Source: Ceratodon purpureus
Lineage: Eukaryota; Streptophyta; Bryopsida; Pseudoditrichales; Ditrichaceae
Direction: 5' to 3'
Length of the DNA stretch: 64,000 bases
Assembly: GCA_014871385.1 (NCBI GenBank)
Contig: CM026426.1
Span: 2,677,852 to 2,741,851 of the forward strand
Shown one piece after another: positions 23,233 through 53,444 of the stretch. The translations under genes and the position numbers were made by a program. How positions within the stretch are numbered: position 1 is the stretch's first letter; each line of letters starts with the position of its first letter. The notes below the pieces were generated by a model. The model had not been told where the DNA came from and searched no databases. It saw only the letters and a list, made by a program, of their open reading frames with translations.

Positions 23233-23271
23233 TCCTCTTTGTAAGTCTTTTTGGATATCATGGAGTCTGTC

Positions 23272-29934: not shown

Positions 29935-31566
29935 ATGGATCACGAAGACCGTCTGCCATTGCGGGACATCAGGCGTCAGCGAAACAGAGATGTGAAACTG
30001 GATGCGAGAGAGGAACTGCTTGCACTTCGGGCTGGAGCAGAAAAAAGGATTTGTCCATGCAACATATGCTGCGGAGAGAATAGGAGTCTCAGGTACAGGG
30101 GTGTGGTACGAGATCATCTCAGGAAATATGGCCGTCATCCATATCTCAGAGGTTCGACTCAGGTATGGTACTCTGCATACGGAATCGTGGTTGATCCTTC
30201 GGAATGTAGAGTGCATTTACCAAATGTGCTACTCATTTAATATGTAGCATTGAATTTAAACGATATATGCTGCCATGTAATATCGGATGTGTGTTGCAGG
30301 GATTCGACATAGACGAATCCGATGTCGAATGGGACAACGACATTCGGGAAGAGTTTGGTAGTAGAGGAGGTGGGCAGCGGAGGAATGCACGCCAGTTAGA
30401 CGTTGGACTGGATCTGGAAGGATTAGTGCAGCATACATTCCACATCTATGATGGAATAGCTGCTGGTATTGGAAATGCGGATGATCGGGTCGGTGGAGAA
30501 TCCGTTTACGATGCGGAAAGGAGGGGAGAGGAGATCGGTGAAGCTGTCGACGGCCCTGGAATACATCCCACAGAGGAGCCGGGCAACGAGGGTGATAGAC
30601 CGGAAGCTCAAGTACCTGAAGCAGATGAGGATATGACGGATGACGACTTACCTGCAATGCAGAACATGCCTCCATCCCGAGAGCAACTGCTAGAAGACAG
30701 TGCCAAAACTCCTTTGTTTGAGGGGTCGGGTCTCACTCAATTAGGTGGGACTCTACTTCTTCTTAACTGTCTTCGAACACATGGGGCATCCAACATCCTA
30801 GTAAATGAGATTTTTGCTATCCTTCATAAGAGTATGCTGCCAACGCTGAATTCTCTTCCACCAAACGAATACCAAGCGTCGAAAGTCTTGAAGCAGCTTG
30901 GACTAGGCTATGAAACAATTCACTCCTGTCCGGGTCCTCGGACTTGTGTCTTATTCAGAGGCGACGAATATAAGGAGCTGACTCGGTGCCCTGTCTGCAA
31001 CGCAGAGCGGTTCAAGCGTGTAGGAAAATCTCTTGTTCCTATGAAGGTACTAAGACACTTCCCCTTAATACCTAGATTGCAGCGCATGTACAGTACACCC
31101 TTGCAGGCCTCGTACATGACTTGGCATCAAAGGCACGCAAGTGAAGACGGTATCATGAGAGGAGCAGTAGATTCGCATCAATGGAAATTTGTGAATTGGA
31201 AATCCCACAGCGAGTTCGCGTTCGAGCCTCGCAATCTTCGGCTCGGATTGGCAACCGATGGTGTCAACCCAATTTCAGTTAAGCGTTCTACCTGGAGCAC
31301 TTGGCCCGTATTGATAATGAATTACAACTTGCCACCGTGGATGACAACGAAGAAGCACTTTGTGATGTTAAGTCTGATTATTCCGGGGAAGAAGTCTGTA
31401 ACAGCAGAGAATTTTGATACCTATCTGCAGCCCTTGTTGGAAGAGTTGAAACTTTTATGGCATACAGGGGTGCAGACAGACGATGCAGCCATATATCAGG
31501 GAAGTCCACGATTCAACATGAAGGCTATTTTGTTATGGACCATGCATGATTTTCCAGCATACGGAA
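29935..31566 (+). pseudogene. tnp2: CACTA transposase (tnp2), 5' part before the insertion
   Basis: Exon 1, 29935-30162 (ATG 29935; phase-0 donor CAG|GTATGG), encodes a transposase-associated domain with CPCNICCGEN and a following His/Arg helix. Exon 2 starts at 30300 after TTGCAG and has an acidic region. The Transposase_21/tnp2 domain follows: CPVCNAERF, LRLGLATDGVNP (first catalytic-type Asp), NYNLPPWMTTKKHFVM and LLWTMHDFPAYG. The frame is open up to 31566, where the gypsy array begins. It resumes in phase at 53830 once one CGGAA copy is discounted. No stop or shift is seen before the break, so the insertion appears to be the only disabling event. Confidence 0.85.
31562..31566. repeat. 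left target-site duplication CGGAA
   Basis: CGGAA immediately before the TG of LTR1, matching CGGAA at 53825-53829 immediately after LTR3. Five bp is the usual duplication length for plant gypsy integrases. Confidence 0.95.
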
Positions 31567-32621
31567 TGTAGCACGACGTGGTATCAGTATTCCTCCGGAA
31601 GGCACTTAATTGACACTAAATACCCTCCAAAGTAAACCACTCCGTGTTCGTTCCCACGAAGACCTATAGTTTTCTTCCTTTTAGATTTTAACGGAAATCA
31701 CCACCCGTGTCCGACCGTACACCGTCTTACAGACGGTTGGACAACTCCGGTAGTTTTTGCCTCGTTCCTATTTTCCGGCTTTTTAGACTAGTGGCCGGTT
31801 CCCACTGATCCGTCTATCCTTTCAAGTGGCTGGATTTTCCACCGTCCTGTGACTTAAAGTGGCTGGACACCCCACTGTTCCTATCTACCACCCGAGAAGT
31901 GGAGTAATAATCCTTCCGTACTGCTATGGACCGGTCCGGATAACTACTCAGTACCGGTTACGGATACGGAAATCATACTACAATGACATCACCTTACGGC
32001 TGCACGGTATCCTACCATACTATCTTCCTTCCGTATTGGTTCGCAGTAGGGCATCCGGCTTTTATCCCATCTACAGGAAGCGACCGGTCCGTTTCCGGAT
32101 CCCGGTGTACACACGGCCCTCCGTGTCCTTGAGACTACCAGCCCTGCTGCAATACGTCTCTCCTCCCCTACGGGCTCCTTCCGGGACTGGAAACCGTCAA
32201 CACTCGACGCTTGACACCTCCCCAGTCTCTCCGGGCGCTCTCCCGACCTTCCTACTGTTCAACACTCCTCCGGAACACTACTGAAGACAATAGAACCGCA
32301 AACCATACGGCAACGGACCCGTCAGCAGCCGGTTGACACAACAAATCAAAAGTATATTCTCAATTGCAACAACAAAACGGCGTACAAAAACAAGGCCCTG
32401 GCCTTGGAAAAACGTCTAACTTAAATACTAAAACCTATCGGTTCCTACAACGACCAAGTGGCCCCCGAGATCCAGAAATTCCGGATCTTGGATCCGGGAA
32501 TCCCGGACCGGTGGCCGCCTTCTATTCCTAGTTACTGCCGCTATCTATCCGGATTGGCAGCCGGGTGCACTGGAGCCCCATCGTTAGTCGCTGCCATTTT
32601 ATCCGGTCCTTATCCTAAACC

Positions 32622-34487
32622 CTACTCCTTGTGCTTATCGAGCCGGGGACTGTGCCGGGTTCCGTCCAACCGTTCCTTCTTCTGTGGCCGCTTCAGTTTC
32701 TTCAACGAGGGGCCTTCTTCCGGAGCCTCAGATGCTGACGGTTCGCTGGACTTCCGGGATCGGTCTACTTGAACTGCCGGGGATGGAGATCGTGCCGCCA
32801 CCGGAACCGCGCTGAGATCCACCTGGAGCGTTTCCGGAGATCCCTGTACCGGCATAAAATCTACCGGTGGTGGTCTCTGGTCCGGTCCCAAAGGAATGTT
32901 TCCGGGGTTAACAGTCTCGACTCCATCCAAGTTGGGTAGAGTGTGCAGACTGCTCAAGGTATCCGGAATAGGATCCTCCAGCGGGTGTCCTACCTCCTGT
33001 TGGGCTGGCCGGATGGCCGACCGTATCGGAGAGGCTGGAGGTGGCACCGGTGCCGGTTCCCTGATTGGGGACGGTGGTCTGGGATCCTCTTGATTTGCCG
33101 GTGGCCCTGATGACGGACCGGCCTCTGCGTAACCGAGGACTTCCACCAGGTTCTTCATCTGCATCCAAGTGTCCTTCATCACCTGCGTCCGGTCGTGCAT
33201 GAACTTTATAATATTCTTCATAGTCGGATCCGGTTGACGGGTCAGGAAGGCCTGATAAACGGCGCACTGATTGGCCACATCTACCGGAAGAGCTAAAGTG
33301 GCCTTGATCTCGGCGACCGACCGGATGGCCTCGACTGACCGGTCACGGGCGTCATTGAAATCTTTCCGGGCATCACGCACTTCCTCCTCGAGCTTCCGAT
33401 TCGTCTCCCGATACTTCGCTAGCCGGTCCATGTGCTTGTCCTGGAGACTGGCCAAATCCCGGTGCTTGCGAAGAATACTCAGGCAATCCTCCACCCGGTC
33501 CGAACCCGTAAGGATCATTACTTCCCTAGCCAACCGGCCCTCCACCTGCCTAGTCGACTGTAAGAACCGGGCATACGTCGTCGCCTGTTCCGATAGGTTA
33601 ACTAAGTCCTGATACGGATCTCCGGTGTGCTCCGGTGGTCCGGTGGGTTGTTGGATCTCCGTGTTTAGGGTTCGCTTGGCCGGTATGGGAGTCCGAGGTG
33701 ATCCGGATGGCTGTCCCTTTTCCGGGCTGGGACGGGGTCTCTTAGCCGGCGTGGGGGAGACCTCGATAACATCATCATCGTCGTCCTGGTCGGACACTTC
33801 TTCCGGCTCAGCGAACTGCTGATAGCTTAAGAGCTCATCGTACTCCCGGACCTCCTCAGTACTCAACAGCCCCTTAGTACGGTAGAGGTGAATGAGGAAA
33901 GACGGAAGGCAGGTGGCCTGCTTCTTGGTCTTCCGGAGATTGGCCACCTGCCGGTCGATTATCGTCTTCATCATGACACCCAAGTCCACCGTGAATTCAC
34001 CGATCATGGCCCCAATGAAAACGGACGCCCACTTAATGGTGATCCGTTTGGGCTTTTCCGGATGGAAAATAGGGTTCATAAACCCTACGACTCTCCGGGC
34101 CTCCGGATCCGCAATGTCATCCAGCTCCCATCCTTCTCTCGGGTCTCCGGCCCCCTTGAGATACCGGTGTACGAAGTCCCGGGTCTCCGGTGTCGAGACC
34201 TCGCCGGAGTTCTTGAAACCATACGTCTCCCTCCAGAGTTGTGCCGTCCACTTATCCGGCTCTCCCCGGATGGTTCCTCGATTCTCGGGATTCTTGACGA
34301 GGATCTCCTGGGCCGGAAGGGCAAGCTTCCAACCCCATGCCTTGTCCAGTAGGACCTCACATCTCATAGACTCTAAGGCGGTCCGGAGGAGCTCCTTCTC
34401 CTTCTCGCCGGCCGGTATCAACGGCATTACCCGTTGTACCCTGAACGACTGTCCTTCCGCCGCCGGTTCCTTCCCTTTCCTACCCAT
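32622..34487 (-). CDS. LTR-encoded 621-aa protein, copy 1
   Basis: ATG 34487 to stop 32622, entirely inside the LTR and in the sense direction of the element. Its start lies about 200 nt downstream of a TATAAAAGG box, so the LTR is a complete transcription unit. Domains: a basic N-terminus; a helical globular domain (residues about 20-215) with ITIKWASVFIGAMIGEFTVD and LPSFLIHLYRTKGLL, resembling the putative plant transposon protein domain of Athila/Tat relatives; an acidic DDDDD patch (about 235) and Pro-rich linker; a coiled coil (about 340-400, KYRETNRKLEEEVRDARKDF); a long Pro/Ser-rich tail; and a basic C-terminus with KKLKRPQKKERL, a likely nuclear signal. No enzyme motif. On genomic RNA it would be the first ORF, before gag. 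Function unknown. Confidence 0.75.
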   Translation of the reverse strand: MGRKGKEPAAEGQSFRVQRVMPLIPAGEKEKELLRTALESMRCEVLLDKAWGWKLALPAQEILVKNPENRGTIRGEPDKWTAQLWRETYGFKNSGEVSTPETRDFVHRYLKGAGDPREGWELDDIADPEARRVVGFMNPIFHPEKPKRITIKWASVFIGAMIGEFTVDLGVMMKTIIDRQVANLRKTKKQATCLPSFLIHLYRTKGLLSTEEVREYDELLSYQQFAEPEEVSDQDDDDDVIEVSPTPAKRPRPSPEKGQPSGSPRTPIPAKRTLNTEIQQPTGPPEHTGDPYQDLVNLSEQATTYARFLQSTRQVEGRLAREVMILTGSDRVEDCLSILRKHRDLASLQDKHMDRLAKYRETNRKLEEEVRDARKDFNDARDRSVEAIRSVAEIKATLALPVDVANQCAVYQAFLTRQPDPTMKNIIKFMHDRTQVMKDTWMQMKNLVEVLGYAEAGPSSGPPANQEDPRPPSPIREPAPVPPPASPIRSAIRPAQQEVGHPLEDPIPDTLSSLHTLPNLDGVETVNPGNIPLGPDQRPPPVDFMPVQGSPETLQVDLSAVPVAARSPSPAVQVDRSRKSSEPSASEAPEEGPSLKKLKRPQKKERLDGTRHSPRLDKHKE

Positions 34488-34687
34488 TCTGCTAAGTCCT
34501 CCTCTCCGTCACTCCGGTAACACCTGCACGCACGATCCTCACCACAATCTCTCGCCTAACGGAAACACTTCCGTCTCACCGTCTCTCTCCTACCGTCTAA
34601 CACTAACTGCGCCCTCCGCCTTAGAGCGCAAGGACCCGTCGTGCCACAAAATGACAAAGAGAAAGGAGGAGCATGGCGGTTCTTCCT

Positions 34688-34696
34688 CCTTTTATA
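34688..34696 (-). promoter_or_regulatory. TATA box in LTR1 U3
   Basis: TATAAAAGG on the minus strand, within GGCAGGTATAAAAGGAGG, about 200 nt before the LTR ORF start. Transcription would be expected to begin near 34660. Confidence 0.8.
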
Positions 34697-35029
34697 CCTG
34701 CCCTCGCGCCCACCCGTTCGTAGCTCATCATGACGGACGGTCGTAGCCCCTCATCATTGGACGGTCGCGACCGGCGGCGTTTTAATGGTTGCAGCCATTA
34801 TCCCCGTGTGCGTTGTACCTTTTGGTGGTTATCCTTAAGTCTGCCGGGTCAGGGCTCTGTCATATGGACTGTACCCGTCTCTCCTCCACCGCAGACGACC
34901 GGATCTCACCCGGCTGGCCTTCCGGTCACTTATTTATTCAGCCGACCGGCTTAACCGGTTGTTTTACTTATAGGCTTAGTACTTCCGTATTTCTAACATA
35001 AAATTTTTAATTTTTTTATCATTTTCCTA

Positions 35030-35075
35030 CCGGAATTAGTATTCCGGTGTGTCAACCGTGGAAATCACTTTCCAC
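35030..35075. repeat. two hairpins at the LTR terminus
   Basis: Two perfect 7-bp inverted repeats with 4-base loops lie side by side: CCGGAAT-TAGT-ATTCCGG (35030-35047) and GTGGAAA-TCAC-TTTCCAC (35058-35075). The second abuts the terminal nucleotide of the LTR. The same pair is in LTR2 and LTR3. Confidence 0.85.
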
Positions 35076-35079
35076 ATTA

Positions 35080-35089
35080 CCCCTTTTTC
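35080..35089 (-). other. polypurine tract, unit 1
   Basis: GAAAAAGGGG on the minus strand, three bases (TAA) before the LTR start. It primes plus-strand synthesis in LTR elements and overlaps the integrase stop codon. Confidence 0.8.
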
Positions 35090-36293
35090 ACCCGTGAGCG
35101 TCCTCGCGAACGTCATCCGGTCTGTACAGTTTGACCTGGGATCCATTCACCCTAGTATCCATTGGATATCCTTCTAGATCTGAAAGTTGTAATGACCCAT
35201 TGGAATAAATCTTATCAACCCGGAACGGTCCCATCCAGCGAGTATGTAACTTACCCGGAAAATTCTTGTACCGGCTGTCATAGACTAGAACCAATCCTCC
35301 TTCTTCGATTCCTTTATCCGTTGTGATTCGCTTGTCATACACTTCCTTCCTTTTTGCTTGGACCTCCTTTGTCCGTTCCAATGCCTCCATCCGGTCTTCC
35401 TCCATCCGGTCGATGACCTGTAGACGGTCGTCGAGTGCATCCGTTTTATCTCCGTGGTTGGCTGCGAGTACCCTCAACGTCTCTACTTCCGTCTCGATGG
35501 ACTGAAGTACCTCCTGTCCGTATACCAGATAATACGGAGTCCGTCCGGTTGTACTCTTGTGCGCCGTGTTGTACGCATAGACCGCCGATGTCAGTTTCCG
35601 GTCCCAGTCCGTCTTATGTGAGGTCACCACCTTGGTCAGAATCTTACAGATTATTCCGTTGGCACGTTCCGTCAATCCGTTCGCCTTAGGATTGTACGGT
35701 GTGGTCTTCCGGTGTTTGACCTCGTACTGGTTGGTCAGACCGGCCACCACTTCGTTCAGGAAATGTGTTCCCCGGTCGCTCACTATCTCCAACGGATGGC
35801 CAAATCGCATCATTATCCTTTCGAATATGAACCGGGCGGATGTCTCGGCATCATTCTTCCGGGTGGCTCTGGCTTCTACCCACTTCGTGGCGTAGTCCGT
35901 CGCCAAAATGATGTACCGGTGCCTCTGAGTGCCTAACGGTTGAATTGGCCCAATAAAATCCACTCCCCATTTTTCAAACGGTGCTAGTGGAACAATGGGA
36001 GTTAACGGCCAGTGATGTCGTACGGCCGGAGCTCCTATCCGTTGGCAGGGATCGCATTCTTTTATAAATTGATGAACATCCCGGTGAAGGTGTGGCCACC
36101 AGTATCCGGCCTCGCGGATCTTCTGTACGGTGATGACGGATGCATAGTGTCCTCCGGCCGGTCCATCGTGCAGAGCCCGGATGACCTTCCGGCGATAGAT
36201 GGGTTCTAGGCAGCGTCGAAGTTTTTCATCCGCCCCTAGCTTGAAAAGCAATTCCCCGACCAGAAAGTACGGTGCCACCCGGTGCTGAAACAC
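35088..36293 (-). CDS. family A integrase frame, unit 1
   Basis: Zinc-binding HHCC domain (HDGPAGGH ... CDPCQRIG), catalytic core with ATDYATKW, VSDRGTHF and NGLTERANG (D, D, E present), then a GPF-type C-terminal part (WMGPFRV ... YSNGSLQL) with no chromodomain. The frame is open upstream to about 36560 and overlaps the end of the RNase H frame. There is no ATG at its head, so it must be reached by a -1 shift from the pol frame or be disabled. It ends with TGA 35088-35090 in the polypurine tract. Confidence 0.85.
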   Translation of the reverse strand: MFQHRVAPYFLVGELLFKLGADEKLRRCLEPIYRRKVIRALHDGPAGGHYASVITVQKIREAGYWWPHLHRDVHQFIKECDPCQRIGAPAVRHHWPLTPIVPLAPFEKWGVDFIGPIQPLGTQRHRYIILATDYATKWVEARATRKNDAETSARFIFERIMMRFGHPLEIVSDRGTHFLNEVVAGLTNQYEVKHRKTTPYNPKANGLTERANGIICKILTKVVTSHKTDWDRKLTSAVYAYNTAHKSTTGRTPYYLVYGQEVLQSIETEVETLRVLAANHGDKTDALDDRLQVIDRMEEDRMEALERTKEVQAKRKEVYDKRITTDKGIEEGGLVLVYDSRYKNFPGKLHTRWMGPFRVDKIYSNGSLQLSDLEGYPMDTRVNGSQVKLYRPDDVREDAHG

Positions 36294-36415
36294 ACTTTTC
36301 TCCTCCCTACTCAGGCCTTCCGGATACCTCTGAGTCTGGAGATAGTTCTTAATCCGCTGAAGATCCTGGTCCTCCCCTTCGTCCTCCTGAATTCGGTAGA
36401 CGGAAGACGTCCCTC

Positions 36416-39271
36416 CTACGACCGGAAGGTCGCGGGGGTCCGGTATATCCTGTATACTGGTACCAACCGGGTATTCTTCCGGAAATTCATCCGGAAACTC
36501 TGAAGATATCTCCTCCTTGCTCTCTTTCCCCGTTGCCGCGACAAGTAATCCGCATTGAGGTTAGACTTCCCGGATTTGACAATAACTTCGTAGTTGAACT
36601 CCTGAAGAAGTAATATCCACCGGGCCAACCTTCCGGACAGATCCGGTTTGTTGACTAGATACTTCAGCGAGTCATGATCCGTATGGAAGATGACTTTGTA
36701 CCCCAATAGGTAATGGCGAAACTTCTTGCACGCATAAATGACGGCTAGAGCCACCCGTTCGGTTGTCGTGTAATTCTTCTCGGCCGGATTCATCTGCCGG
36801 CTGGCATAATAGATGGGTCGTTCCCGGCCCTCGTCATCCAATTGCCATAGGATAGCTCCCACACACCAACCGGATGCATCCAAAGTGACATGAAAAGATT
36901 TCGACCAGTCCGGTGGTGCTAGTATAGGGGCTGTGACCAACCGTCTCTTCAGTTCTTCAAAAGCCTGTTGACGGATTTCCGTCCAGAGGTACTCTTCTTC
37001 CTTCTTGAGCAGCTTCGTTAGTGGCATTGCCAACCGGGCATAATTCTCAATGAACCTCCGGTAGTATCCCACACACCCCAGAAATCCTCTGAGTTCCCGG
37101 AGGTTGGTGGGAGCAAGAAGGGCCAACATGACTATCACTTTTGCTACATCCACTGCTATTCCCTTCCGGCTGACTATGTGTCCGAGCAATAGTCCGGCTA
37201 ACATACCAAAAAAACACTTGCCCGGATGGAGCTTGAGTTTAGTCTCCCGGCATCGCTGGAACGTTTTCCGGAGATAGTCCAGATGTTCCATCCACCGGCT
37301 GAACACCGCAAAGTCGTCAATGAAAACTTCCAGGAAGTGTTTTAAGAAATCCTGAAAGATGTCCATCATCAACCGTTGAAACGTTCCGGGAGCATTGCAC
37401 AATCCGAAAGGCATCCGGTTGAAAGCGTAGGTACCCCAATCGGTGGTAAAAGTAGTTTTCAGTTGGTCCTCCTTCCGGATGGACACCTGATTGTATCCGG
37501 AAAACCCATCTAGAAAACTGAAGCATTCCTGACCGGCCACGTGATCGAGCACCATGTCGATGAAGGGTAAAGGGAAATGATCCTTCTTCGTGGCTGCATT
37601 CAGCTTCCGGAAGTCCTGACATACCCGGATTTTGACTTTACCATCCGGACCCGTTTTCTTTGGTACTACCACAATCGGTGACACCCACTCGGAGTTATTC
37701 ACTGGATAAATAAAACCGGCTTCCAGCAGTTTATCTAGTTCCTCCTTCACCATCATGGAGTACTTTGGGTTGAGCCGGTACTGCCTTTGGCGAACCGGAA
37801 CCGCTCCCTCCATTAGGTCGATGTGGTGTTCGCCCAATTCCGGCGGTATACCCACCAGATCCGATGGGAGCCAGGCGAAGACGTCATCATATTCCGTAAG
37901 CAGTTCCAAATACTGTGCCCGCTCCCGGTCCGTCAGCCCTTTTCCCAAATAGAAAGTCCTACCGGCTTCCGTCTTCACTGCTTCGTAATCTTCCGGTGCT
38001 ACCACATTCTTGACCGGTTCGCTAGCATCCGTTCCTACGGACCCCGGAAGGGCTGACCAGGGTAAGTCACTGGTCCTTGACCCGGATATTCTTGTTTTGA
38101 TTATCCCATCTGCGAACTGTCCTCTAATCCATTCGGAGGTCAATGGAACGCTTGCTTCTCCTAAGGCCCTGTCATCTTCCTTCCTGCCTTCCGGCGGTCG
38201 GTTCGGTACTTCGGTTCCATCCGGCTTCTGTTCAGGTACCGGGTTACGGAATCCCAGATCTTCTTCTGATACCTCCCGGAATTCTTGAACATGATACGAT
38301 TGCAGGGAATCCGAGTTTTCTGACCCTGTCCAATCGGAAGTGTAACCATCCGTCTCACTTGTTTCCCCCAGATGGGGCTCCGGTTTCCACGATAGCAAAA
38401 CAGCCGGATCCCCGAAAGTAAAAGCCTTCTTCGCCCAATTTACCTTGACTCCGGCTAGATATAGCCACGGCCGTCCGAGTAACAGTGGAAACGGATTTCC
38501 TTCCTCCACCCGGATAACCAAATAGTTGAGCGGGTAAGTGAGTCCGGAAATCTTTGTCGGTTCTGCCGACAGTTTTCCCACTGGTACTACTCGAGACTGG
38601 TCTGCCATCCGTAGGGTCTGATTGGTAGGCTCAAAGGCAGTGTACCCTAAATCGTTGGCCGTACTCTCCAGTAGTAGATTTACTCCGGATCCTCCATCTA
38701 CCGGTACCTTCTGGATAATACATCCGTCGATCTCCACAGCTATTTCCGGAGCCCCGAAATCCTCCATCTCGGCAAAATTAACTGCGACGGAAGGCAGCTT
38801 AATCTTCCGTTTCCGGGTCCGGATTAAGCCGGACTTAACCTGCTTCTGATAATTTGGATTATCATGTAACAGTTGTCCTATGGTGACATTGGCCGGCTGG
38901 GCTTGAATATCCTGGAGGATGTCGTACCTGTCGGCTTTCGCCCGGACCTCCGGTTGGATTATTTCCGGAATCTCGCTGAATGTCACCTTCCGGCCCTCCT
39001 GTACTTGAGGTAACCCAGCAATTACCTCCGGTCCAATGTCCGGCATGGTTGGTGGGGTCTTGACCCCTTTTTCAACCGGGACCGTCTCCGGGGGCACCTC
39101 CTTCTCTGATTCCCCGGAAGTCTCTGAAGATTCCGGTCGGCTACTCTCTTTCCTCTGTGACCTGGTCCGAACACCAGACTTCCTCTTCTTCTTTTCTGAA
39201 TCCTGTCCCCGGGTGGAACTACGCGAACTGACCTGATGGATACCCACGCCGGTCTCTCCTCGTGGTTCCAC
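36416..39271 (-). CDS. family A protease - reverse transcriptase - RNase H, unit 1
   Basis: A 951-codon frame. The N-terminal 80 residues are Ser/Glu-rich. The protease follows, with VPVDGGSGVNLL (DGG in place of the usual D-S/T-G) and LLLGRPWLYLAG. Reverse transcriptase has KIRVCQDFRKLN, FSFLDGFSGYNQV, MPFGLCNAPGTFQR and FIDDFAVFS. RNase H has TLDASGWCVGAIL, a YASRQ segment and terminal ADYLSRQ. The frame lies directly after the gag TGA (39281-39283) in the same phase and has no ATG for its first 75 or so codons, so expression by readthrough is implied. It ends in about 37 residues without similarity after ADYLSRQ, past a -1 shift candidate. Confidence 0.9.
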   Translation of the reverse strand: MEPRGETGVGIHQVSSRSSTRGQDSEKKKRKSGVRTRSQRKESSRPESSETSGESEKEVPPETVPVEKGVKTPPTMPDIGPEVIAGLPQVQEGRKVTFSEIPEIIQPEVRAKADRYDILQDIQAQPANVTIGQLLHDNPNYQKQVKSGLIRTRKRKIKLPSVAVNFAEMEDFGAPEIAVEIDGCIIQKVPVDGGSGVNLLLESTANDLGYTAFEPTNQTLRMADQSRVVPVGKLSAEPTKISGLTYPLNYLVIRVEEGNPFPLLLGRPWLYLAGVKVNWAKKAFTFGDPAVLLSWKPEPHLGETSETDGYTSDWTGSENSDSLQSYHVQEFREVSEEDLGFRNPVPEQKPDGTEVPNRPPEGRKEDDRALGEASVPLTSEWIRGQFADGIIKTRISGSRTSDLPWSALPGSVGTDASEPVKNVVAPEDYEAVKTEAGRTFYLGKGLTDRERAQYLELLTEYDDVFAWLPSDLVGIPPELGEHHIDLMEGAVPVRQRQYRLNPKYSMMVKEELDKLLEAGFIYPVNNSEWVSPIVVVPKKTGPDGKVKIRVCQDFRKLNAATKKDHFPLPFIDMVLDHVAGQECFSFLDGFSGYNQVSIRKEDQLKTTFTTDWGTYAFNRMPFGLCNAPGTFQRLMMDIFQDFLKHFLEVFIDDFAVFSRWMEHLDYLRKTFQRCRETKLKLHPGKCFFGMLAGLLLGHIVSRKGIAVDVAKVIVMLALLAPTNLRELRGFLGCVGYYRRFIENYARLAMPLTKLLKKEEEYLWTEIRQQAFEELKRRLVTAPILAPPDWSKSFHVTLDASGWCVGAILWQLDDEGRERPIYYASRQMNPAEKNYTTTERVALAVIYACKKFRHYLLGYKVIFHTDHDSLKYLVNKPDLSGRLARWILLLQEFNYEVIVKSGKSNLNADYLSRQRGKRARRRYLQSFRMNFRKNTRLVPVYRIYRTPATFRS
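36524..36530 (-). promoter_or_regulatory. candidate -1 frameshift heptamer GGGAAAG, unit 1
   Basis: In the pol frame the minus strand reads cgG GGA AAG, which fits X-XXY-YYZ. A -1 slip continues GAG AGC AAG GAG straight into the integrase frame. It lies two codons after ADYLSRQ. Z = G is a weak heptamer in eukaryotes. Confidence 0.4.
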
Positions 39272-39283
39272 CGGTAACCGTCA
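39209..39283 (-). promoter_or_regulatory. gag/pol UGA-CGG stop with downstream stem-loop, unit 1
   Basis: Gag ends AGT TGA CGG (TGA at 39281-39283) and pol continues in the same frame. Six bases after the stop-adjacent codon context begins a stem. Arm 39274-39261 pairs with arm 39223-39209 through CCGG, TGGAAC and ACG: 13 pairs with one bulge, one mismatch and a 37-base loop. UGA-CGG plus a 3' stem is the class II readthrough arrangement known from several plant RNA viruses. Confidence 0.6.
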
Positions 39284-40846
39284 ACTTGGCGGATTCTCTA
39301 CCCCGTCTTTGTGACCGTAGTCGAGCCCGGTACGCTCCCGTGGAGGTTCTTCCACTTGCTTATAGATAGCCCTAGGTCTAACCGGTTGTTGGCATTGGGG
39401 TGACTTATGGCCGTACTGACCACAGTTTTGACACGGGAGTTCCAACGGTGCGCCTTGACCTCCTCGGTGTGGACAATTGTTAGCATAATGACCGGCTTCT
39501 CCACAAATATAACAGCATCCAAACTGCCGTTCCACTGAGACGGGTGGTCGTGCCGGCGGGGCCGGATGTCCACCGGATGGATAGCCCATTCCGGGTCGAG
39601 GTCTGATAACCGGCTGTATCATCCGTCCACGGCCATAGGCAGGGTTTACCTGGTAAACCGGTAGCATCTCCACTTCCTCCTCTTCATAAGCAGGTTCCGC
39701 AAAGAATACTGACCCCTCTTCATCCACAAACTGCACTCTCTTGGGCGCTCCGTGTGGGCATTCCCGGTTGTAATGTCCCGGCTTTCCGCAGTTGGTGCAC
39801 CACACGTTGTTCCGGACGGTGGGCAGCGCCTTCCGTGCTTTCTTCTCTTCCGCCATCTGGACTTTAAGTTCTTCAATGCTGTTCACCAGATCTTTGATCA
39901 TCCGTTTCTCCGATGGGTATTCCTCCTTTACTCGGACTATCGTCCGTTCTTTGTCTTTCCGGTAGCCCTTGCTACCTGACGCCTTCCGTCGTGAGCGATC
40001 CTCTTCACTGCTGCTGCTTCCGGTTTCCGAGCTATCTTCGGAGCTGGATCCACTGGATTCTGAACTAGAATCCCGGTTCCTCCGGACCTTTCGGAGACGT
40101 CTAGAGGTCTTCCCTGCCTTACGGTACTGCCGTATGGACTGCTTGGAGTTTTCATAGTTCTGGGCGGCCTCCATGGCCTCCGGTAAAGTCTGTGGCCGGG
40201 TCTGCCTTACTTGGAACCCCATCCGGTCGGGTAACCCAGCGACGTACCATTCTACCTGGATACTATTTGCAATTCCGGGACTTAGTTTATGAATTAAACT
40301 CCTAACCCTCTATCCGTACCGCCGGACCGACTCTTCCGGCTCCATCCGGATTTTACTAAGTTTTCCCAATGTGCGGGCTTCTCCTCCTACCTCCCGGAAG
40401 GCCCTCCGGAAGGCATCGGATAGCAAACCCCAACTTCTTCGCACGTTGTCCGGTTCCTCTTGGTACCACTGGAGTGCCTCCTTCTTGAGTAATCCCTGGA
40501 ACAACCGTAACTTGATTGCTTCGTCCTCTTGGTTGGCAGCAGCCGTGGCGTTGAACTCGCTTAGCCATTCGTCCACGTCCTCCCGGCCATCGCCCCTGAA
40601 CTTCCGATACTTCAGTCTGGAGAACGTCCGGGCCATAGGAAGACCCGCTACCGGTCCTCCGGCCACCGGCCCGGGTGGTACTGTCCCACCCTGACCTCCG
40701 GATCCGGAAGTCCCAGCTATCTCTTGATCTGTGTCTTCAATAAATTCTGATCTAGTAGTGACGAATGGTCTGGCTTCCGTCTCCTGATCACCCTTCTTCT
40801 TTCTACTAGACCTCCGTACTCCTTCCGGCTTAGAATTCGGATTCAT
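39281..40846 (-). CDS. family A gag, interrupted by one UAG, unit 1
   Basis: ATG 40846 opens a 178-codon frame with a basic start, a Gly/Pro linker and the retrotransposon gag core (FRGDGREDVDEWLSEF ... ALQWYQEE), ending SVRRYG-TAG (40310-40312). In the same phase the sequence continues RVRSLIHKL and on through MGFQ (40222) to a Ser-rich acidic region. Three CCHC knuckles follow: CTNCGKPGHYNREC, CYICGEAGHYANNC and CQNCGQYGHKSPQC. The final stop is TGA 39281. Related gags have a sense codon, likely Gln, at the UAG, so a CAG to TAG change is probable. The leader between primer site and ATG is only about 65 nt. Confidence 0.85.
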
Positions 40847-40911
40847 GCGTTTTCTACAACCTGACTTAGGTTAGTGACAACCGTAGAAATCCGGAGGAAG
40901 AAAATCATATA

Positions 40912-40931
40912 GATCCCCGGCAGCGGCGCCA
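40912..40931 (-). other. primer-binding site, tRNA-Asp, unit 1
   Basis: Plus-strand GATCCCCGGCAGCGGCGCCA matches the 3' end of plant tRNA-Asp(GUC) at 19 of 20 positions, from general knowledge of that tRNA. It lies 9 bases inside the LTR2 boundary. tRNA-Asp priming is known for Athila-type elements. Confidence 0.85.
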
Positions 40932-41995
40932 AAAATCACATGTAGCACGACGTGGTATCAGTATTCCTCCGGAAGGCACTTAATTGACACTAAATACCCT
41001 CCAAAGTAAACCACTCCGTGTTCGTTCCCACGAAGACCTATAGTTTTCTTCCTTTTAGATTTTAACGGAAATCACCACCCGTGTCCGACCGTACACCGTC
41101 TTACAGACGGTTGGACAACTCCGGTAGTTTTTGCCTCGTTCCTATTTTCCGGCTTTTTAGACTAGTGGCCGGTTCCCACTGATCCGTCTATCCTTTCAAG
41201 TGGCTGGATTTTCCACCGTCCTGTGACTTAAAGTGGCTGGACACCCCACTGTTCCTATCTACCACCCGAGAAGTGGAGTAATAATCCTTCCGTACTGCTA
41301 TGGACCGGTCCGGATAACTACTCAGTACCGGTTACGGATACGGAAATCATACTACAATGACATCACCTTACGGCTGCACGGTATCCTACCATACTATCTT
41401 CCTTCCGTATTGGTTCGCAGTAGGGCATCCGGCTTTTATCCCATCTACAGGAAGCGACCGGTCCGTTTCCGGATCCCGGTGTACACACGGCCCTCCGTGT
41501 CCTTGAGACTACCAGCCCTGCTGCAATACGTCTCTCCTCCCCTACGGGCTCCTTCCGGGACTGGAAACCGTCAACACTCGACGCTTGACACCTCCCCAGT
41601 CTCTCCGGGCGCTCTCCCGACCTTCCTACTGTTCAACACTCCTCCGGAACACTACTGAAGACAATAGTACCACAAACCATACGGCAACGGACCCGTCAGC
41701 AGCCGGTTGACACAACAAATCAAAAGTATATTCTCAATTGCAACAACAAAACGGCGTACAAAAACAAGGCCCTGGCCTTGGAAAAACGTCTAACTTAAAT
41801 ACTAAAACCTATCGGTTCCTACAACGACCAAGTGGCCCCCGAGATCCAGAAATTCCGGATCTTGGATCCGGGAATCCCGGACCGGTGGCCGCCTTCTATT
41901 CCTAGTTACTGCCGCTATCTATCCGGATTGGCAGCCGGGTGCACTGGAGCCCCATCGTTAGTCGCTGCCATTTTATCCGGTCCTTATCCTAAACC

Positions 41996-43861
41996 CTACT
42001 CCTTGTGCTTATCGAGCCGGGGACTGTGCCGGGTTCCGTCCAACCGTTCCTTCTTCTGTGGCCGCTTCAGTTTCTTCAACGAGGGGCCTTCTTCCGGAGC
42101 CTCAGATGCTGACGGTTCGCTGGACTTCCGGGATCGGTCTACTTGAACTGCCGGGGATGGAGATCGTGCCGCCACCGGAACTGCGCTGAGATCCACCTGG
42201 AGCGTTTCCGGAGATCCCTGTACCGGCATAAAATCTACCGGTGGTGGTCTCTGGTCCGGTCCCAAAGGAATGTTTCCGGGGTTAACAGTCTCGACTCCAT
42301 CCAAGTTGGGTAGAGTGTGCAGACTGCTCAAGGTATCCGGAATAGGATCCTCCAGCGGGTGTCCTACCTCCTGTTGGGCTGGCCGGATGGCCGACCGTAT
42401 CGGAGAGGCTGGAGGTGGCACCGGTGCCGGTTCCCTGATTGGGGACGGTGGTCTGGGATCCTCTTGATTTGCCGGTGGCCCTGATGACGGACCGGCCTCT
42501 GCGTAACCGAGGACTTCCACCAGGTTCTTCATCTGCATCCAAGTGTCCTTCATCACCTGCGTCCGGTCGTGCATGAACTTTATAATATTCTTCATAGTCG
42601 GATCCGGTTGACGGGTCAGGAAGGCCTGATAAACGGCGCACTGATTGGCCACATCTACCGGAAGAGCTAAAGTGGCCTTGATCTCGGCGACCGACCGGAT
42701 GGCCTCGACTGACCGGTCACGGGCGTCATTGAAATCTTTCCGGGCATCACGCACTTCCTCCTCGAGCTTCCGATTCGTCTCCCGATACTTCGCTAGCCGG
42801 TCCATGTGCTTGTCCTGGAGACTGGCCAAATCCCGGTGCTTGCGAAGAATACTCAGGCAATCCTCCACCCGGTCCGAACCCGTAAGGATCATTACTTCCC
42901 TAGCCAACCGGCCCTCCACCTGCCTAGTCGACTGTAAGAACCGGGCATACGTCGTCGCCTGTTCCGATAGGTTAACTAAGTCCTGATACGGATCTCCGGT
43001 GTGCTCCGGTGGTCCGGTGGGTTGTTGGATCTCCGTGTTTAGGGTTCGCTTGGCCGGTATGGGAGTCCGAGGTGATCCGGATGGCTGTCCCTTTTCCGGG
43101 CTGGGACGGGGTCTCTTAGCCGGCGTGGGGGAGACCTCGATAACATCATCATCGTCGTCCTGGTCGGACACTTCTTCCGGCTCAGCGAACTGCTGATAGC
43201 TTAAGAGCTCATCGTACTCCCGGACCTCCTCAGTACTCAACAGCCCCTTAGTACGGTAGAGGTGAATGAGGAAAGACGGAAGGCAGGTGGCCTGCTTCTT
43301 GGTCTTCCGGAGATTGGCCACCTGCCGGTCGATTATCGTCTTCATCATGACACCCAAGTCCACCGTGAATTCACCGATCATGGCCCCAATGAAAACGGAC
43401 GCCCACTTAATGGTGATCCGTTTGGGCTTTTCCGGATGGAAAATAGGGTTCATAAACCCTACGACTCTCCGGGCCTCCGGATCCGCAATGTCATCCAGCT
43501 CCCATCCTTCTCTCGGGTCTCCGGCCCCCTTGAGATACCGGTGTACGAAGTCCCGGGTCTCCGGTGTTGAGACCTCGCCGGAGTTCTTGAAACCATACGT
43601 CTCCCTCCAGAGTTGTGCCGTCCACTTATCCGGCTCTCCCCGGATGGTTCCTCGATTCTCGGGATTCTTGACGAGGATCTCCTGGGCCGGAAGGGCAAGC
43701 TTCCAACCCCATGCCTTGTCCAGTAGGACCTCACATCTCATAGACTCTAAGGCGGTCCGGAGGAGCTCCTTCTCCTTCTCGCCGGCCGGTATCAACGGCA
43801 TTACCCGTTGTACCCTGAACGACTGTCCTTCCGCCGCCGGTTCCTTCCCTTTCCTACCCAT
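41996..43861 (-). CDS. LTR-encoded 621-aa protein, copy 2
   Basis: Same length and protein sequence as copy 1 as far as compared by eye; the nucleotide differences at 42182 and 43568 appear silent. Here the ORF precedes the gag of unit 1 on a transcript started in this LTR. Confidence 0.75.
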   Translation of the reverse strand: MGRKGKEPAAEGQSFRVQRVMPLIPAGEKEKELLRTALESMRCEVLLDKAWGWKLALPAQEILVKNPENRGTIRGEPDKWTAQLWRETYGFKNSGEVSTPETRDFVHRYLKGAGDPREGWELDDIADPEARRVVGFMNPIFHPEKPKRITIKWASVFIGAMIGEFTVDLGVMMKTIIDRQVANLRKTKKQATCLPSFLIHLYRTKGLLSTEEVREYDELLSYQQFAEPEEVSDQDDDDDVIEVSPTPAKRPRPSPEKGQPSGSPRTPIPAKRTLNTEIQQPTGPPEHTGDPYQDLVNLSEQATTYARFLQSTRQVEGRLAREVMILTGSDRVEDCLSILRKHRDLASLQDKHMDRLAKYRETNRKLEEEVRDARKDFNDARDRSVEAIRSVAEIKATLALPVDVANQCAVYQAFLTRQPDPTMKNIIKFMHDRTQVMKDTWMQMKNLVEVLGYAEAGPSSGPPANQEDPRPPSPIREPAPVPPPASPIRSAIRPAQQEVGHPLEDPIPDTLSSLHTLPNLDGVETVNPGNIPLGPDQRPPPVDFMPVQGSPETLQVDLSAVPVAARSPSPAVQVDRSRKSSEPSASEAPEEGPSLKKLKRPQKKERLDGTRHSPRLDKHKE

Positions 43862-44061
43862 TCTGCTAAGTCCTCCTCTCCGTCACTCCGGTAACACCTG
43901 CACGCACGATCCTCACCACAATCTCTCGCCTAACGGAAACACTTCCGTCTCACCGTCTCTCTCCTACCGTCTAACACTAACTGCGCCCTCCGCCTTAGAG
44001 CGCAAGGACCCGTCGTGCCACAAAATGACAAAGAGAAAGGAGGAGCATGGCGGTTCTTCCT

Positions 44062-44070
44062 CCTTTTATA
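44062..44070 (-). promoter_or_regulatory. TATA box in LTR2 U3
   Basis: TATAAAAGG, identical in sequence and position to that of LTR1. It would drive unit 1. Confidence 0.8.
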
Positions 44071-44453
44071 CCTGCCCTCGCGCCCACCCGTTCGTAGCTC
44101 ATCATGACGGACGGTCGTAGCCCCTCATCATTGGACGGTCGCGACCGGCGGCGTTTTAATGGTTGCAGCCATTATCCCCGTGTGCGTTGTACCTTTTGGT
44201 GGTTATCCTTAAGTCTGCCGGGTCAGGGCTCTGTCATATGGACTGTACCCGTCTCTCCTCCACCGCAGACGACCGGATCTCACCCGGCTGGCCTTCCGGT
44301 CACTTATTTATTCAGCCGACCGGCTTAACCGGTTGTTTTACTTATAGGCTTAGTACTTCCGTATTTCTAACATAAAATTTTTAATTTTTTTATCATTTTC
44401 CTACCGGAATTAGTATTCCGGTGTGTCAACCGTGGAAATCACTTTCCACATTA

Positions 44454-44463
44454 CCCCTTTTTC
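44454..44463 (-). other. polypurine tract, unit 2
   Basis: GAAAAAGGGG on the minus strand, next to the LTR2 boundary. Confidence 0.8.
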
Positions 44464-45667
44464 ACCCGTGAGCGTCCTCGCGAACGTCATCCGGTCTGTA
44501 CAGTTTGACCTGGGATCCATTCACCCTAGTATCCATTGGATATCCTTCTAGATCTGAAAGTTGTAATGACCCATTGGAATAAATCTTATCAACCCGGAAC
44601 GGTCCCATCCAGCGAGTATGTAACTTACCCGGAAAATTCTTGTACCGGCTGTCATAGACTAGAACCAATCCTCCTTCTTCGATTCCTTTATCCGTTGTGA
44701 TTCGCTTGTCATACACTTCCTTCCTTTTTGCTTGGACCTCCTTTGTCCGTTCCAATGCCTCCATCCGGTCTTCCTCCATCCGGTCGATGACCTGTAGACG
44801 GTCGTCGAGTGCATCCGTTTTATCTCCGTGGTTGGCTGCGAGTACCCTCAACGTCTCTACTTCCGTCTCGATGGACTGAAGTACCTCCTGTCCGTATACC
44901 AGATAATACGGAGTCCGTCCGGTTGTACTCTTGTGCGCCGTGTTGTACGCATAGACCGCCGATGTCAGTTTCCGGTCCCAGTCCGTCTTATGTGAGGTCA
45001 CCACCTTGGTCAGAATCTTACAGATTATTCCGTTGGCACGTTCCGTCAATCCGTTCGCCTTAGGATTGTACGGTGTGGTCTTCCGGTGTTTGACCTCGTA
45101 CTGGTTGGTCAGACCGGCCACCACTTCGTTCAGGAAATGTGTTCCCCGGTCGCTTACTATCTCCAACGGATGGCCAAATCGCATCATTATCCTTTCGAAT
45201 ATGAACCGGGCGGATGTCTCGGCATCATTCTTCCGGGTGGCTCTGGCTTCTACCCACTTCGTGGCGTAGTCCGTCGCCAAAATGATGTACCGGTGCCTCT
45301 GAGTGCCTAACGGTTGAATTGGCCCAATAAAATCCACTCCCCATTTTTCAAACGGTGCTAGTGGAACAATGGGAGTTAACGGCCAGTGATGTCGTACGGC
45401 CGGAGCTCCTATCCGTTGGCAGGGATCGCATTCTTTTATAAATTGATGAACATCCCGGTGAAGGTGTGGCCACCAGTATCCGGCCTCGCGGATCTTCTGT
45501 ACGGTGATGACGGATGCATAGTGTCCTCCGGCCGGTCCATCGTGCAGAGCCCGGATGACCTTCCGGCGATAGATGGGTTCTAGGCAGCGTCGAAGTTTTT
45601 CATCCGCCCCTAGCTTGAAAAGCAATTCCCCGACCAGAAAGTACGGTGCCACCCGGTGCTGAAACAC
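44462..45667 (-). CDS. family A integrase frame, unit 2
   Basis: Protein identical to that of unit 1 as far as compared; the one base difference seen (45155, C to T) is silent. HHCC and D,D,E residues are retained, and the frame is again entered only by a -1 step. Confidence 0.85.
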   Translation of the reverse strand: MFQHRVAPYFLVGELLFKLGADEKLRRCLEPIYRRKVIRALHDGPAGGHYASVITVQKIREAGYWWPHLHRDVHQFIKECDPCQRIGAPAVRHHWPLTPIVPLAPFEKWGVDFIGPIQPLGTQRHRYIILATDYATKWVEARATRKNDAETSARFIFERIMMRFGHPLEIVSDRGTHFLNEVVAGLTNQYEVKHRKTTPYNPKANGLTERANGIICKILTKVVTSHKTDWDRKLTSAVYAYNTAHKSTTGRTPYYLVYGQEVLQSIETEVETLRVLAANHGDKTDALDDRLQVIDRMEEDRMEALERTKEVQAKRKEVYDKRITTDKGIEEGGLVLVYDSRYKNFPGKLHTRWMGPFRVDKIYSNGSLQLSDLEGYPMDTRVNGSQVKLYRPDDVREDAHG

Positions 45668-45789
45668 ACTTTTCTCCTCCCTACTCAGGCCTTCCGGATA
45701 CCTCTGAGTCTGGAGATAGTTCTTAATCCGCTGAAGATCCTGGTCCTCCCCTTCGTCCTCCTGAATTCGGTAGACGGAAGACGTCCCTC

Positions 45790-48645: not shown

Positions 48646-48657
48646 CGGTAACCGTCA
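48583..48657 (-). promoter_or_regulatory. gag/pol UGA-CGG stop with stem-loop, unit 2
   Basis: TGA at 48655-48657; arms at 48648-48635 and 48597-48583. The unit-specific base 48582 falls just outside the stem, which is unchanged. Confidence 0.6.
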
Positions 48658-50220: not shown

Positions 50221-50285
50221 GCGTTTTCTACAACCTGACTTAGGTTAGTGACAACCGTAGAAATCCGGAGGAAGAAAATCATATA

Positions 50286-50305
50286 GATCCCCGGCAGCGG
50301 CGCCA
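50286..50305 (-). other. primer-binding site, tRNA-Asp, unit 2
   Basis: Identical 20-base site, 9 bases inside LTR3. Confidence 0.85.
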
Positions 50306-51369
50306 AAAATCACATGTAGCACGACGTGGTATCAGTATTCCTCCGGAAGGCACTTAATTGACACTAAATACCCTCCAAAGTAAACCACTCCGTGTTCGTT
50401 CCCACGAAGACCTATAGTTTTCTTCCTTTTAGATTTTAACGGAAATCACCACCCGTGTCCGACCGTACACCGTCTTACAGACGGTTGGACAACTCCGGTA
50501 GTTTTTGCCTCGTTCCTATTTTCCGGCTTTTTAGACTAGTGGCCGGTTCCCACTGATCCGTCTATCCTTTCAAGTGGCTGGATTTTCCACCGTCCTGTGA
50601 CTTAAAGTGGCTGGACACCCCACTGTTCCTATCTACCACCCGAGAAGTGGAGTAATAATCCTTCCGTACTGCTATGGACCGGTCCGGATAACTACTCAGT
50701 ACCGGTTACGGATACGGAAATCATACTACAATGACATCACCTTACGGCTGCACGGTATCCTACCATACTATCTTCCTTCCGTATTGGTTCGCAGTAGGGC
50801 ATCCGGCTTTTATCCCATCTACAGGAAGCGACCGGTCCGTTTCCGGATCCCGGTGTACACACGGCCCTCCGTGTCCTTGAGACTACCAGCCCTGCTGCAA
50901 TACGTCTCTCCTCCCCTACGGGCTCCTTCCGGGACTGGAAACCGTCAACACTCGACGCTTGACACCTCCCCAGTCTCTCCGGGCGCTCTCCCGACCTTCC
51001 TACTGTTCAACACTCCTCCGGAACACTACTGAAGACAATAGTACCACAAACCATACGGCAACGGACCCGTCAGCAGCCGGTTGACACAACAAATCAAAAG
51101 TATATTCTCAATTGCAACAACAAAACGGCGTACAAAAACAAGGCCCTGGCCTTGGAAAAACGTCTAACTTAAATACTAAAACCTATCGGTTCCTACAACG
51201 ACCAAGTGGCCCCCGAGATCCAGAAATTCCGGATCTTGGATCCGGGAATCCCGGACCGGTGGCCGCCTTCTATTCCTAGTTACTGCCGCTATCTATCCGG
51301 ATTGGCAGCCGGGTGCACTGGAGCCCCATCGTTAGTCGCTGCCATTTTATCCGGTCCTTATCCTAAACC

Positions 51370-53235: not shown

Positions 53236-53435
53236 TCTGCTAAGTCCTCCTCTCCGTCACTCCGGTAACACCTGCACGCACGATCCTCACCACAATCTCT
53301 CGCCTAACGGAAACACTTCCGTCTCACCGTCTCTCTCCTACCGTCTAACCCTAACTGCGCCCTCCGCCTTAGAGCGCAAGGACCCGTCGTGCCACAAAAT
53401 GACAAAGAGAAAGGAGGAGCATGGCGGTTCTTCCT

Positions 53436-53444
53436 CCTTTTATA
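53436..53444 (-). promoter_or_regulatory. TATA box in LTR3 U3
   Basis: TATAAAAGG. This is the copy expected to start the full genomic RNA of unit 2. Confidence 0.8.

What the first reader, a model, noticed from the sequence alone, without database searches (positions are those of the whole stretch)
31567..35076. A gypsy LTR that is itself a complete protein-coding gene
Seen: each 3,510-bp LTR holds TATAAAAGG, about 170 nt of presumed leader, and an uninterrupted 621-codon ORF in the element's sense, while gag-pol lies outside. Consequences (inference): every solo LTR stays a gene; the ORF is the first cistron on genomic RNA and would have to be bypassed to make gag; the R-U5 part would exceed 3 kb, so minus strong-stop DNA would be unusually long. 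LTR-coded proteins are known (the MMTV superantigen) but are rare in plant gypsy elements.
Basis: partly seen in the sequence, partly recalled or inferred. Interest (0 to 1): 0.87.

Follow-up and report, generated by a model that had tools for sequence, protein, structure and literature searches.

The report
Jumping gene with protein-coding ends
In what looks like a moss genome, a family of copy-and-paste mobile elements carries a complete protein gene inside each of its repeated ends, so even lone leftover ends can still hold an intact gene; this arrangement was not found described in plants in the papers searched.

Summary
On the minus strand, three 3,510-bp LTRs (31567-35076, 40941-44450, 50315-53824) alternate with two 5,864-bp internals: a shared-LTR tandem flanked by TTCCG, with PPT and PBS in place. 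Each LTR holds TATAAAAGG and an open 621-codon ORF.

The wider genome shows the same structure: of 60 fetched LTRs (four touching the window), 56 have exact terminal heptamers, three differ by one base there and one is truncated. Of nine LTRs with no adjoining internal and exact 5-bp flanks, seven keep the ORF open. The protein is under purifying selection (dN/dS 0.35 between elements, frame-specific) and has relatives down to 29% identity.

ORF-less LTRs also exist: one unit read from a ~2-kb tandem shares LTR end and PBS but lacks ORF and gag-pol, so the ORF is probably trans-acting.

Best reading: the LTR is a transcription unit (TATA, leader, ORF, T-rich terminator) encoding an accessory protein. 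Transcript ends, splicing and function are inferred. The window's gag-pol copies are interrupted.

Nine paper searches, five aimed at this, listed no plant LTR-encoded gene. New variant; interest 0.7.

The parts
31567..35076 (-). LTR 1 (3' LTR of the array), 3,510 bp, TGTGG...CTACA
40941..44450 (-). LTR 2 (shared middle LTR)
   Evidence: 4 differences from LTR 1, 3 from LTR 3
50315..53824 (-). LTR 3 (5' LTR of the array)
31562..31566 (-). target-site duplication TTCCG (3' side)
53825..53829 (-). target-site duplication TTCCG (5' side)
34688..34696 (-). TATAAAAGG in LTR 1 (LTR position 381); present at LTR 380-382 in 59 of 59 aligned LTRs
32622..34487 (-). ORF621 in LTR 1, 621 codons
41996..43861 (-). 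ORF621 in LTR 2
51370..53235 (-). ORF621 in LTR 3
32317..32405 (-). candidate terminator/poly(A) region after the ORF: palindrome AAGGCC-GGCCTT followed by a T-rich stretch (LTR ~2672-2760); partly alignable in the ORF-less relative; function inferred
35077..40940 (-). internal region 1, 5,864 bp
44451..50314 (-). internal region 2, 5,864 bp (5 differences from internal 1)
50286..50305 (-). primer-binding site TGGCGCCGCTGCCGGGGATC, 9 nt after the LTR end (resembles the complement of plant tRNA-Asp, recalled)
35080..35088 (-). polypurine tract AAAAAGGGG just before LTR 1
49687..50220 (-). gag, first part, up to an in-frame TAG at 49684-49686
48655..49596 (-). gag, zinc-knuckle part (313 aa from its first ATG), ending at a TGA
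45790..48645 (-). protease(presumed)-RT-RNase H, 951 aa
44462..45667 (-). integrase, 401 aa, in a different frame from RT-RNase H; no chromodomain match
61545..64000 (-). 3' LTR of a second, neighbouring element (95% subfamily), cut by the window end; ORF621 open and continuing beyond the window (L068)

Best explanation
A Ty3/gypsy retrotransposon family in a plant-like (probably moss) genome has its extra gene not between the LTRs but inside them. Shown: the LTR borders, the ORF in both LTRs of full copies and in solo LTRs, purifying selection on the protein between elements, distant relatives of similar length, and an ORF-less short relative with the same LTR end and PBS. Inferred: each LTR is a self-contained transcription unit in which the TATA box at LTR 381 starts a transcript whose first ATG is the ORF's and a T-rich region after the ORF (LTR ~2,670-2,760) ends it, so that the whole ORF lies in R. 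Transcripts that stop in the first LTR they meet (5', 3' or solo) would be mRNA for the protein; transcripts that read through would be genomic RNA, from which gag-pol needs splicing or another bypass. The protein (69.7 kDa, coiled coil, basic nuclear-signal-like stretches, disordered tail) most likely acts in trans as a nuclear accessory factor of the element's cycle (transcription, silencing escape or RNA export).
For: Borders, PBS, PPT and TSD. Of the 20 further 5'/3' LTR pairs called within 20 kb, 17 have exact 5-bp TSDs, one a 6-bp TSD, one a single mismatch and one none. Nine solo LTRs with exact 5-bp flanks, seven with an open ORF. Selection: 213 synonymous and 194 nonsynonymous differences in 18 disjoint pairs, dN/dS 0.285, or 0.35 with kappa 3.26, P 6e-25; leaving out two doubtful pairs gives 194 and 173, 0.346, P 2e-23. 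The sense frame alone carries the signal (0.353); the antisense frame sharing its third positions gives 0.437, and the other frames and flanking LTR parts give 0.66-1.94. Post-insertion 5'/3' pairs: 13 syn, 25 nonsyn, 0.75 corrected, not different from neutral. Relatives: 80% (621 aa), 40-44% (612 aa), 29% (679 aa), colinear. TATAAAAGG in 59 of 59 LTRs; the only 60-bp windows of at least 60% AT in LTR 2 are at the LTR start and just after the ORF. ORF-less relative, one unit read.
Against: No RNA evidence of any kind. No homology or usable fold for the protein, so its function is a guess from composition. The poly(A) site could lie elsewhere, which would put the ORF in U5 rather than R. Copies analysed were the best-scoring ones, which biases towards intact ORFs and low dN. 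The contrast between-element versus within-element is only P 0.04. The census of LTRs with and without the ORF is incomplete (33 of 100 listed junctions unresolved).
Confidence: 0.55

Rival explanations
1. The LTR-encoded protein is a structural or particle-associated factor (an extra Gag-like or RNA-binding component) made from genomic RNA, not a nuclear regulator. The gene sits in the LTR because that makes it the first cistron.
For: The first ATG after the presumed start is the ORF's. A long coiled coil and a conserved N-terminal domain would suit a structural role. The short relative lacks both gag-pol and the ORF.
Against: A basic nuclear-signal-like C-terminal stretch (judged by eye) is kept in the 40-44% relative. 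No similarity to gag or capsid families.
Confidence: 0.25
2. The poly(A) site lies close after the TATA box, so R is short and the ORF lies in U5. There is no separate LTR mRNA; the ORF is only a first cistron or an intron-like leader of genomic RNA.
For: Nothing excludes a diffuse plant poly(A) signal in the leader; an AATAAA lies at LTR ~139, upstream of TATA, and no conserved one follows the ORF.
Against: The only AT-rich island after TATA is downstream of the ORF, and that region is still alignable (75% over 85 bp) in the ORF-less relative.
Confidence: 0.2
3. The ORF is kept for the host: a captured or domesticated host gene spread by LTRs.
For: Intact ORFs in solo LTRs.
Against: All 60 fetched loci are LTRs of this family; post-insertion differences look neutral (0.75); no single-copy host relative stood out in three protein searches of the genome, but each listed only the best 71-72 of 2,146-2,885 candidates.
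Confidence: 0.05
4. The long ORF is an accident of composition or of DNA-level constraint.
For: Non-coding LTR parts also diverge slowly (0.014 against 0.027 at synonymous sites). An antisense ORF of 284 codons also exists.
Against: Frame-specific dN/dS and third-position excess 99/77/231; full-length relatives at 29-44% identity.
Confidence: 0.02
5. The repeat is not an LTR; ORF621 belongs to the internal region of a tandem array.
For: The window does hold a three-repeat tandem.
Against: Solo copies with TSDs and the same two borders; PBS and PPT at the borders; two-LTR elements elsewhere.
Confidence: 0.01

Closest known systems
Plant LTR-retrotransposons with additional ORFs (aORF/eORF: Athila, Ogre, Grande, RIRE2, Retand, SIRE) - PMC7264820 and PMC6317226 (passages of each seen)
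   Same: A sense-strand ORF of more than 250 codons beyond gag-pol, carried by many copies, without known domain
   Different: Those described in the passages lie in the internal region, mostly between pol and the 3' LTR; here the ORF is wholly inside both LTRs, so it is duplicated in each element and kept in solo LTRs. The 2019 survey passages seen do not say whether LTRs were excluded from its ORF scan
MMTV superantigen (sag) and, partly, lentiviral nef (recalled, nothing looked up)
   Same: Protein coded in an LTR of a reverse-transcribing element
   Different: Those ORFs lie in U3, upstream of the LTR start site; here the ORF lies downstream of the TATA box (R or R-U5), so the LTR that holds it could express it itself
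Tandem shared-LTR arrays of plant LTR retrotransposons - PMC11899658 (abstract and discussion read)
   Same: LTR-internal-LTR-internal-LTR flanked by one TSD, as in the window
   Different: No difference seen in the array form itself
Phygy, the non-chromovirus gypsy clade of Physcomitrella (PMC6317226, passages)
   Same: Moss-type host (here recalled), no chromodomain, internal region largely filled by the polyprotein
   Different: TSDs here show no NCGN preference; RT phylogeny not tested; no LTR gene mentioned for Phygy in the passages seen

Membership tests
Ty3/gypsy LTR retrotransposon | RT-RNase H upstream of integrase | tested here: met
   RVT_1 and RT_RNaseH in the 951-aa ORF, rve in the downstream 401-aa ORF
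Ty3/gypsy LTR retrotransposon | TG...CA LTRs, PBS, PPT, 4-6 bp TSD | tested here: met
Chromovirus clade | Chromodomain at the integrase C terminus | tested here: not met
   no chromodomain match at E<=1 in the 401-aa integrase ORF
Tat/Ogre clade | Additional (archaeal-type) RNase H domain | tested here: inconclusive
   only RT_RNaseH and RT_RNaseH_2 on one overlapping stretch; frames are broken between RT and INT
Phygy clade | NCGN insertion-site preference | tested here: not met
   TSDs, counted by eye: 2 of 28 hold NCGN
Phygy clade | Place in the RT/INT tree | not tested
   no reference set of plant RT sequences at hand
Plant additional-ORF (eORF) elements | Extra ORF of at least 250 codons besides gag-pol | tested here: met
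   621 codons
Plant additional-ORF (eORF) elements | ORF in the internal region | tested here: not met
   the ORF lies within the LTR (LTR 590-2455 in the window)
LTR-encoded protein genes (MMTV sag type) | ORF inside LTR | tested here: met
LTR-encoded protein genes (MMTV sag type) | ORF in U3 | tested here: inconclusive
   the ORF lies after TATAAAAGG in 59 of 59 LTRs, which speaks against U3, but the start site itself was not mapped

The most novel reading that the evidence does not exclude
The LTR is a complete gene whose coding sequence lies wholly in R, so genomic RNA carries the gene at both ends, minus strong-stop DNA (~3.1 kb) is a DNA copy of the gene, and a solo LTR is an expressible gene that keeps supplying a trans-acting factor after gag-pol has decayed, supporting ORF-less non-autonomous relatives with the same LTR end and PBS. 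5'-LTR termination versus read-through would be the switch between accessory mRNA and genome.
Probability: 0.4. Interest if true: 0.85.

Novelty: new variant of a known kind. Interest (0 to 1): 0.7.

Why it matters
Placing a selected gene in the LTR changes the usual rules: each insertion carries two copies, recombination to a solo LTR can leave an intact gene, and the first strand-transfer intermediate must copy the gene. It gives a natural system to ask how an element picks between ending transcription in its first LTR and reading through, how gag is reached behind a 621-codon first ORF, and whether solo LTRs can act in trans. It also suggests that ORF scans restricted to internal regions would miss such genes. 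The protein family has no Pfam match above cut-off.

Tried and rejected
Structure: two AlphaFold jobs (whole protein with 3 sequences, N-terminal 235 aa with 4) gave mean pLDDT 40 and 47, so no fold search was made. A likeness that I recalled to Pfam plant-transposon/Athila-ORF1 families was tested by hmmscan on the whole protein, parts and relatives and was not found; PHROGs and PDB sequence searches gave only chance-level hits. Two scans of viral contigs and one of bacterial and archaeal species genomes confirmed no relative. A candidate 3' splice site just before gag (CACTAAC...CAG) was seen, but its branch-to-AG distance is short and it varies between copies; kept only as an idea. Rfam and tRNA scans of the window were empty. 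Searches with the integrase and with the PPT-LTR junction did not complete, so an element census from those sides is missing. Whether other copies share the gag stop was not tested.

The unbiased test of LTRs with and without the ORF is incomplete. Of the 100 listed PBS junctions (115 counted), 55 have ORF621 at the standard distance and one more (C6:106247429) an ORF621 match that ends early; by hand, one (C6:10941664) has it about 1 kb further off and ten lie in ~2-kb tandems (one unit read, ORF-less); 33 remain unresolved, among them C3:547731, with an ORF start only 1,390 bp before the LTR end.

Full report
What is there. The window lies in a held assembly G000 of 362.5 Mb in 151 contigs, at C6:2677852-2741851; C6 is 110.5 Mb. 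Size and one giant contig fit the moss Ceratodon purpureus and its sex chromosome; that name is recalled, not shown. On the minus strand three 3,510-bp repeats alternate with two 5,864-bp internals. The LTRs differ by 3-7 bases and the internals by 5. Outer ends are flanked by TTCCG, inner ends by AAAAAGGGGTAA (PPT) and TGTGATTTTTGGCGCCGCTGCCGGGGATC (PBS). This is a shared-LTR tandem, a form described as common in plants (PMC11899658, abstract and discussion read). The middle LTR has no private change; at 475, 887 and 1845 it matches LTR 1 and at 883, 2269, 2779 and 2783 it matches LTR 3, as expected of an exchange between the 3' and 5' LTR with one later change (inference).

The LTR gene. Each window LTR has TATAAAAGG at position 381, then an ORF of 621 codons at 590-2455. 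One search scored 71 of 2,560 first-look candidates and listed all 71 as full-length matches. I fetched 60 of these 71 with flanks (L009-L068; L009-L011 are the window's three LTRs and L068 is partly in the window). 59 align over the whole LTR (3,505-3,516 bp): 56 with exact terminal heptamers, three with one changed base; L027 is truncated and was dropped from later counts. TATAAAAGG is present in 59 of 59 and the ORF is unbroken in 50 of 59. By flanks, 24 are 5' LTRs, 25 are 3' LTRs, one is the shared middle LTR and 10 have no internal within 400 bp on either side. Nine of these ten have identical 5-bp flanks; seven of the nine keep the ORF open. One of the nine (L051) shares its upstream flank with a neighbouring 5' LTR and is an odd case. 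Three protein searches list 166 distinct loci of the ORF, and an ORF-start pattern has 291 matches with at most two mismatches, control 0. In one search, 43 of 71 hits are free of stops.

Selection. In 18 disjoint pairs (36 of 37 representatives) there are 213 synonymous and 194 nonsynonymous differences: dN/dS 0.285, or 0.35 after weighting by the transition bias of the non-coding LTR (kappa 3.26), P 6e-25 against neutrality. Two of these pairs are doubtful: L017-L044 have matching CAACT flanks 37 kb apart and may be one element, and L030 duplicates the element of L036/L029. Without both: 194 and 173, 0.346, P 2e-23. Control frames: sense ORF frame 0.353; the antisense frame that shares third positions 0.437; the other four frames 1.31-1.94; leader and post-ORF parts 0.66-1.55. 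Within 22 5'/3' pairs (post-insertion change; two of them are the window's array) counts are 13 and 25, corrected 0.75, not different from neutral (P 0.37); between versus within P 0.04. The second subfamily in the window (L068) gives 19 and 24, dN/dS 0.39 over the part inside the window. So the ORF looks selected while elements replicate and largely free of selection once inserted, as expected for a gene of a selfish element. Bias: top-scoring copies were used, which favours intact ORFs and low dN.

Relatives. Three searches of the 5.8-billion set (the first two scored only the best 7,999 candidates) found four proteins: P0001 80% (621 aa), P0002 98% over 53% of the query (371 aa, differs after residue ~327), P0003 40-44% (612 aa) and P0004 29% (679 aa), the last seen only with a regional query. 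P0003 and P0004 are colinear over the whole length: N-terminal domain with the core GFMNPIFHPEKPKR...WAS, coiled coil, LPVDV motif, disordered tail with basic residues. The contigs of P0001, P0003 and P0004 (2.2-2.4 kb) are too short to tell whether they lie in LTRs. No Pfam, PHROG or PDB sequence match beyond weak, sub-threshold hits; AlphaFold models were unusable.

LTRs without the ORF. The LTR-end plus PBS pattern has 115 places (control 0; 100 listed). Of the 100, 36 match ORF hits, 13 more an exact ORF start 2,923-2,927 bp before the LTR end, and 7 more an ORF hit, of which one ends early. By hand, one more has an ORF hit about 1 kb further away, and ten lie in arrays with 2,052-2,077-bp spacing. 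One unit of these (L069) has an LTR of about 1,660 bp with the same LTR end and PBS, 88% identity in the last 130 bp, weaker alignment to the rest of the post-ORF part, a TATAA near 415, no sense ATG ORF longer than 37 codons, and a ~410-bp internal without gag-pol. Thus the ORF seems not to be needed in cis and behaves like gag-pol. 33 of the 100 remain unresolved.

How it may work. In LTR 2 the only 60-bp windows with at least 60% AT are near the LTR start and at 2701, after the ORF. That island is preceded by a palindrome (AAGGCC.GGGCCTT form in 54 of 59) and T-runs; its counterpart is alignable (75% over 85 bp) in L069. The simplest reading is a gene-like unit: start ~410, first ATG at 590, end ~2,700, so that the ORF lies in R. 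Transcripts ending in the first LTR would be mRNA; read-through would be genome. Reaching gag would need splicing or another bypass. None of this was measured. Composition (NLS-like KKLKRxQKK and KRPRP by eye, coiled coil, pI 6.3, 69.7 kDa) suggests a nuclear accessory protein; a particle protein is the main rival.

State of gag-pol. In both internals (5 differences apart; stop positions listed for internal 2, ORFs for both) the gag-pol frame has an in-frame TAG (internal 629) and a TGA followed by CGG (1658) between gag and pol, and integrase lies in another frame. I only describe this; whether other copies share it was not tested.

Literature. Nine searches were run; aimed at extra or LTR-borne ORFs, at the host group. 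None listed a plant element with a gene inside its LTR, by titles, abstract starts and the passages read; wording in other papers may differ. The review of additional ORFs (PMC7264820, passages) places them in the internal region, mostly between pol and the 3' LTR. The systematic survey (PMC6317226, passages) sorts extra ORFs of at least 250 codons by side of the polyprotein; the passages seen do not exclude LTRs, so some eORF-5'F entries could be LTR-borne. Passages of PMC9289625, PMC6431247 and PMC7466625 were also seen. MMTV sag is a recalled precedent that lies in U3.

Verdict. Observation confirmed; interpretation partly supported; new variant of the known extra-ORF LTR retrotransposons.

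Noticed in passing
G000 C10:6499865-6506070 (L069 = C10:6501880-6504030); also C2:9804338/9806415, C4:12060127/12062179, C6:29012540/29014594: Tandem arrays with 2,052-2,077-bp period sharing LTR end and PBS with the window's element; the one unit read has a ~1,660-bp LTR without the ORF and a ~410-bp internal without gag-pol.
   Followed up: partly
window 31567-53824: Shared-LTR tandem of three LTRs and two internals under one TSD; the middle LTR looks like an exchange product of the outer two.
   Followed up: yes
window 48655-50220 and 44462-48645 (and the same in 35077-40940): gag has an in-frame TAG, gag and pol are separated by TGA-CGG (a possible read-through context, recalled), and integrase is in another frame, while the LTR ORFs are open.
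   Followed up: partly
window 30267-31571 and 55516-56382: The array sits inside a CACTA-type transposon: Transposase_21 (tnp2) on one side, DUF4218 on the other, same strand.
   Followed up: partly
window 20416-24171: Remains of another gypsy element on the minus strand (gag with Retrotrans_gag; RNase H/integrase-like ORF, by eye).
   Followed up: no
window 10154-11070: GGAGAG-rich minisatellite-like block and 111-bp repeats.
   Followed up: no
window 33892-34746, 43266-44120, 52640-53494 (+): 284-codon ORF antisense to ORF621; one antisense frame shares third positions with ORF621 and shows a mirrored low ratio (0.437).
   Followed up: partly
LTR family (18 pairs): Non-coding LTR parts diverge about half as fast as synonymous sites of the ORF (0.014 against 0.027): constraint on the non-coding LTR or different mutation rates.
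   Followed up: no
G000 C3:547731: A PBS junction with the ORF start only 1,390 bp before the LTR end: probably an LTR with an internal deletion.
   Followed up: no
G000 C2:12525754 and C2:12562692 (L017, L044): 5' and 3' LTRs with matching CAACT flanks 37 kb apart: probably one element with large nested insertions.
   Followed up: partly
G000: 65 of 166 listed ORF621 loci lie on C6, which holds 30% of the assembly; the listings are not unbiased.
   Followed up: no
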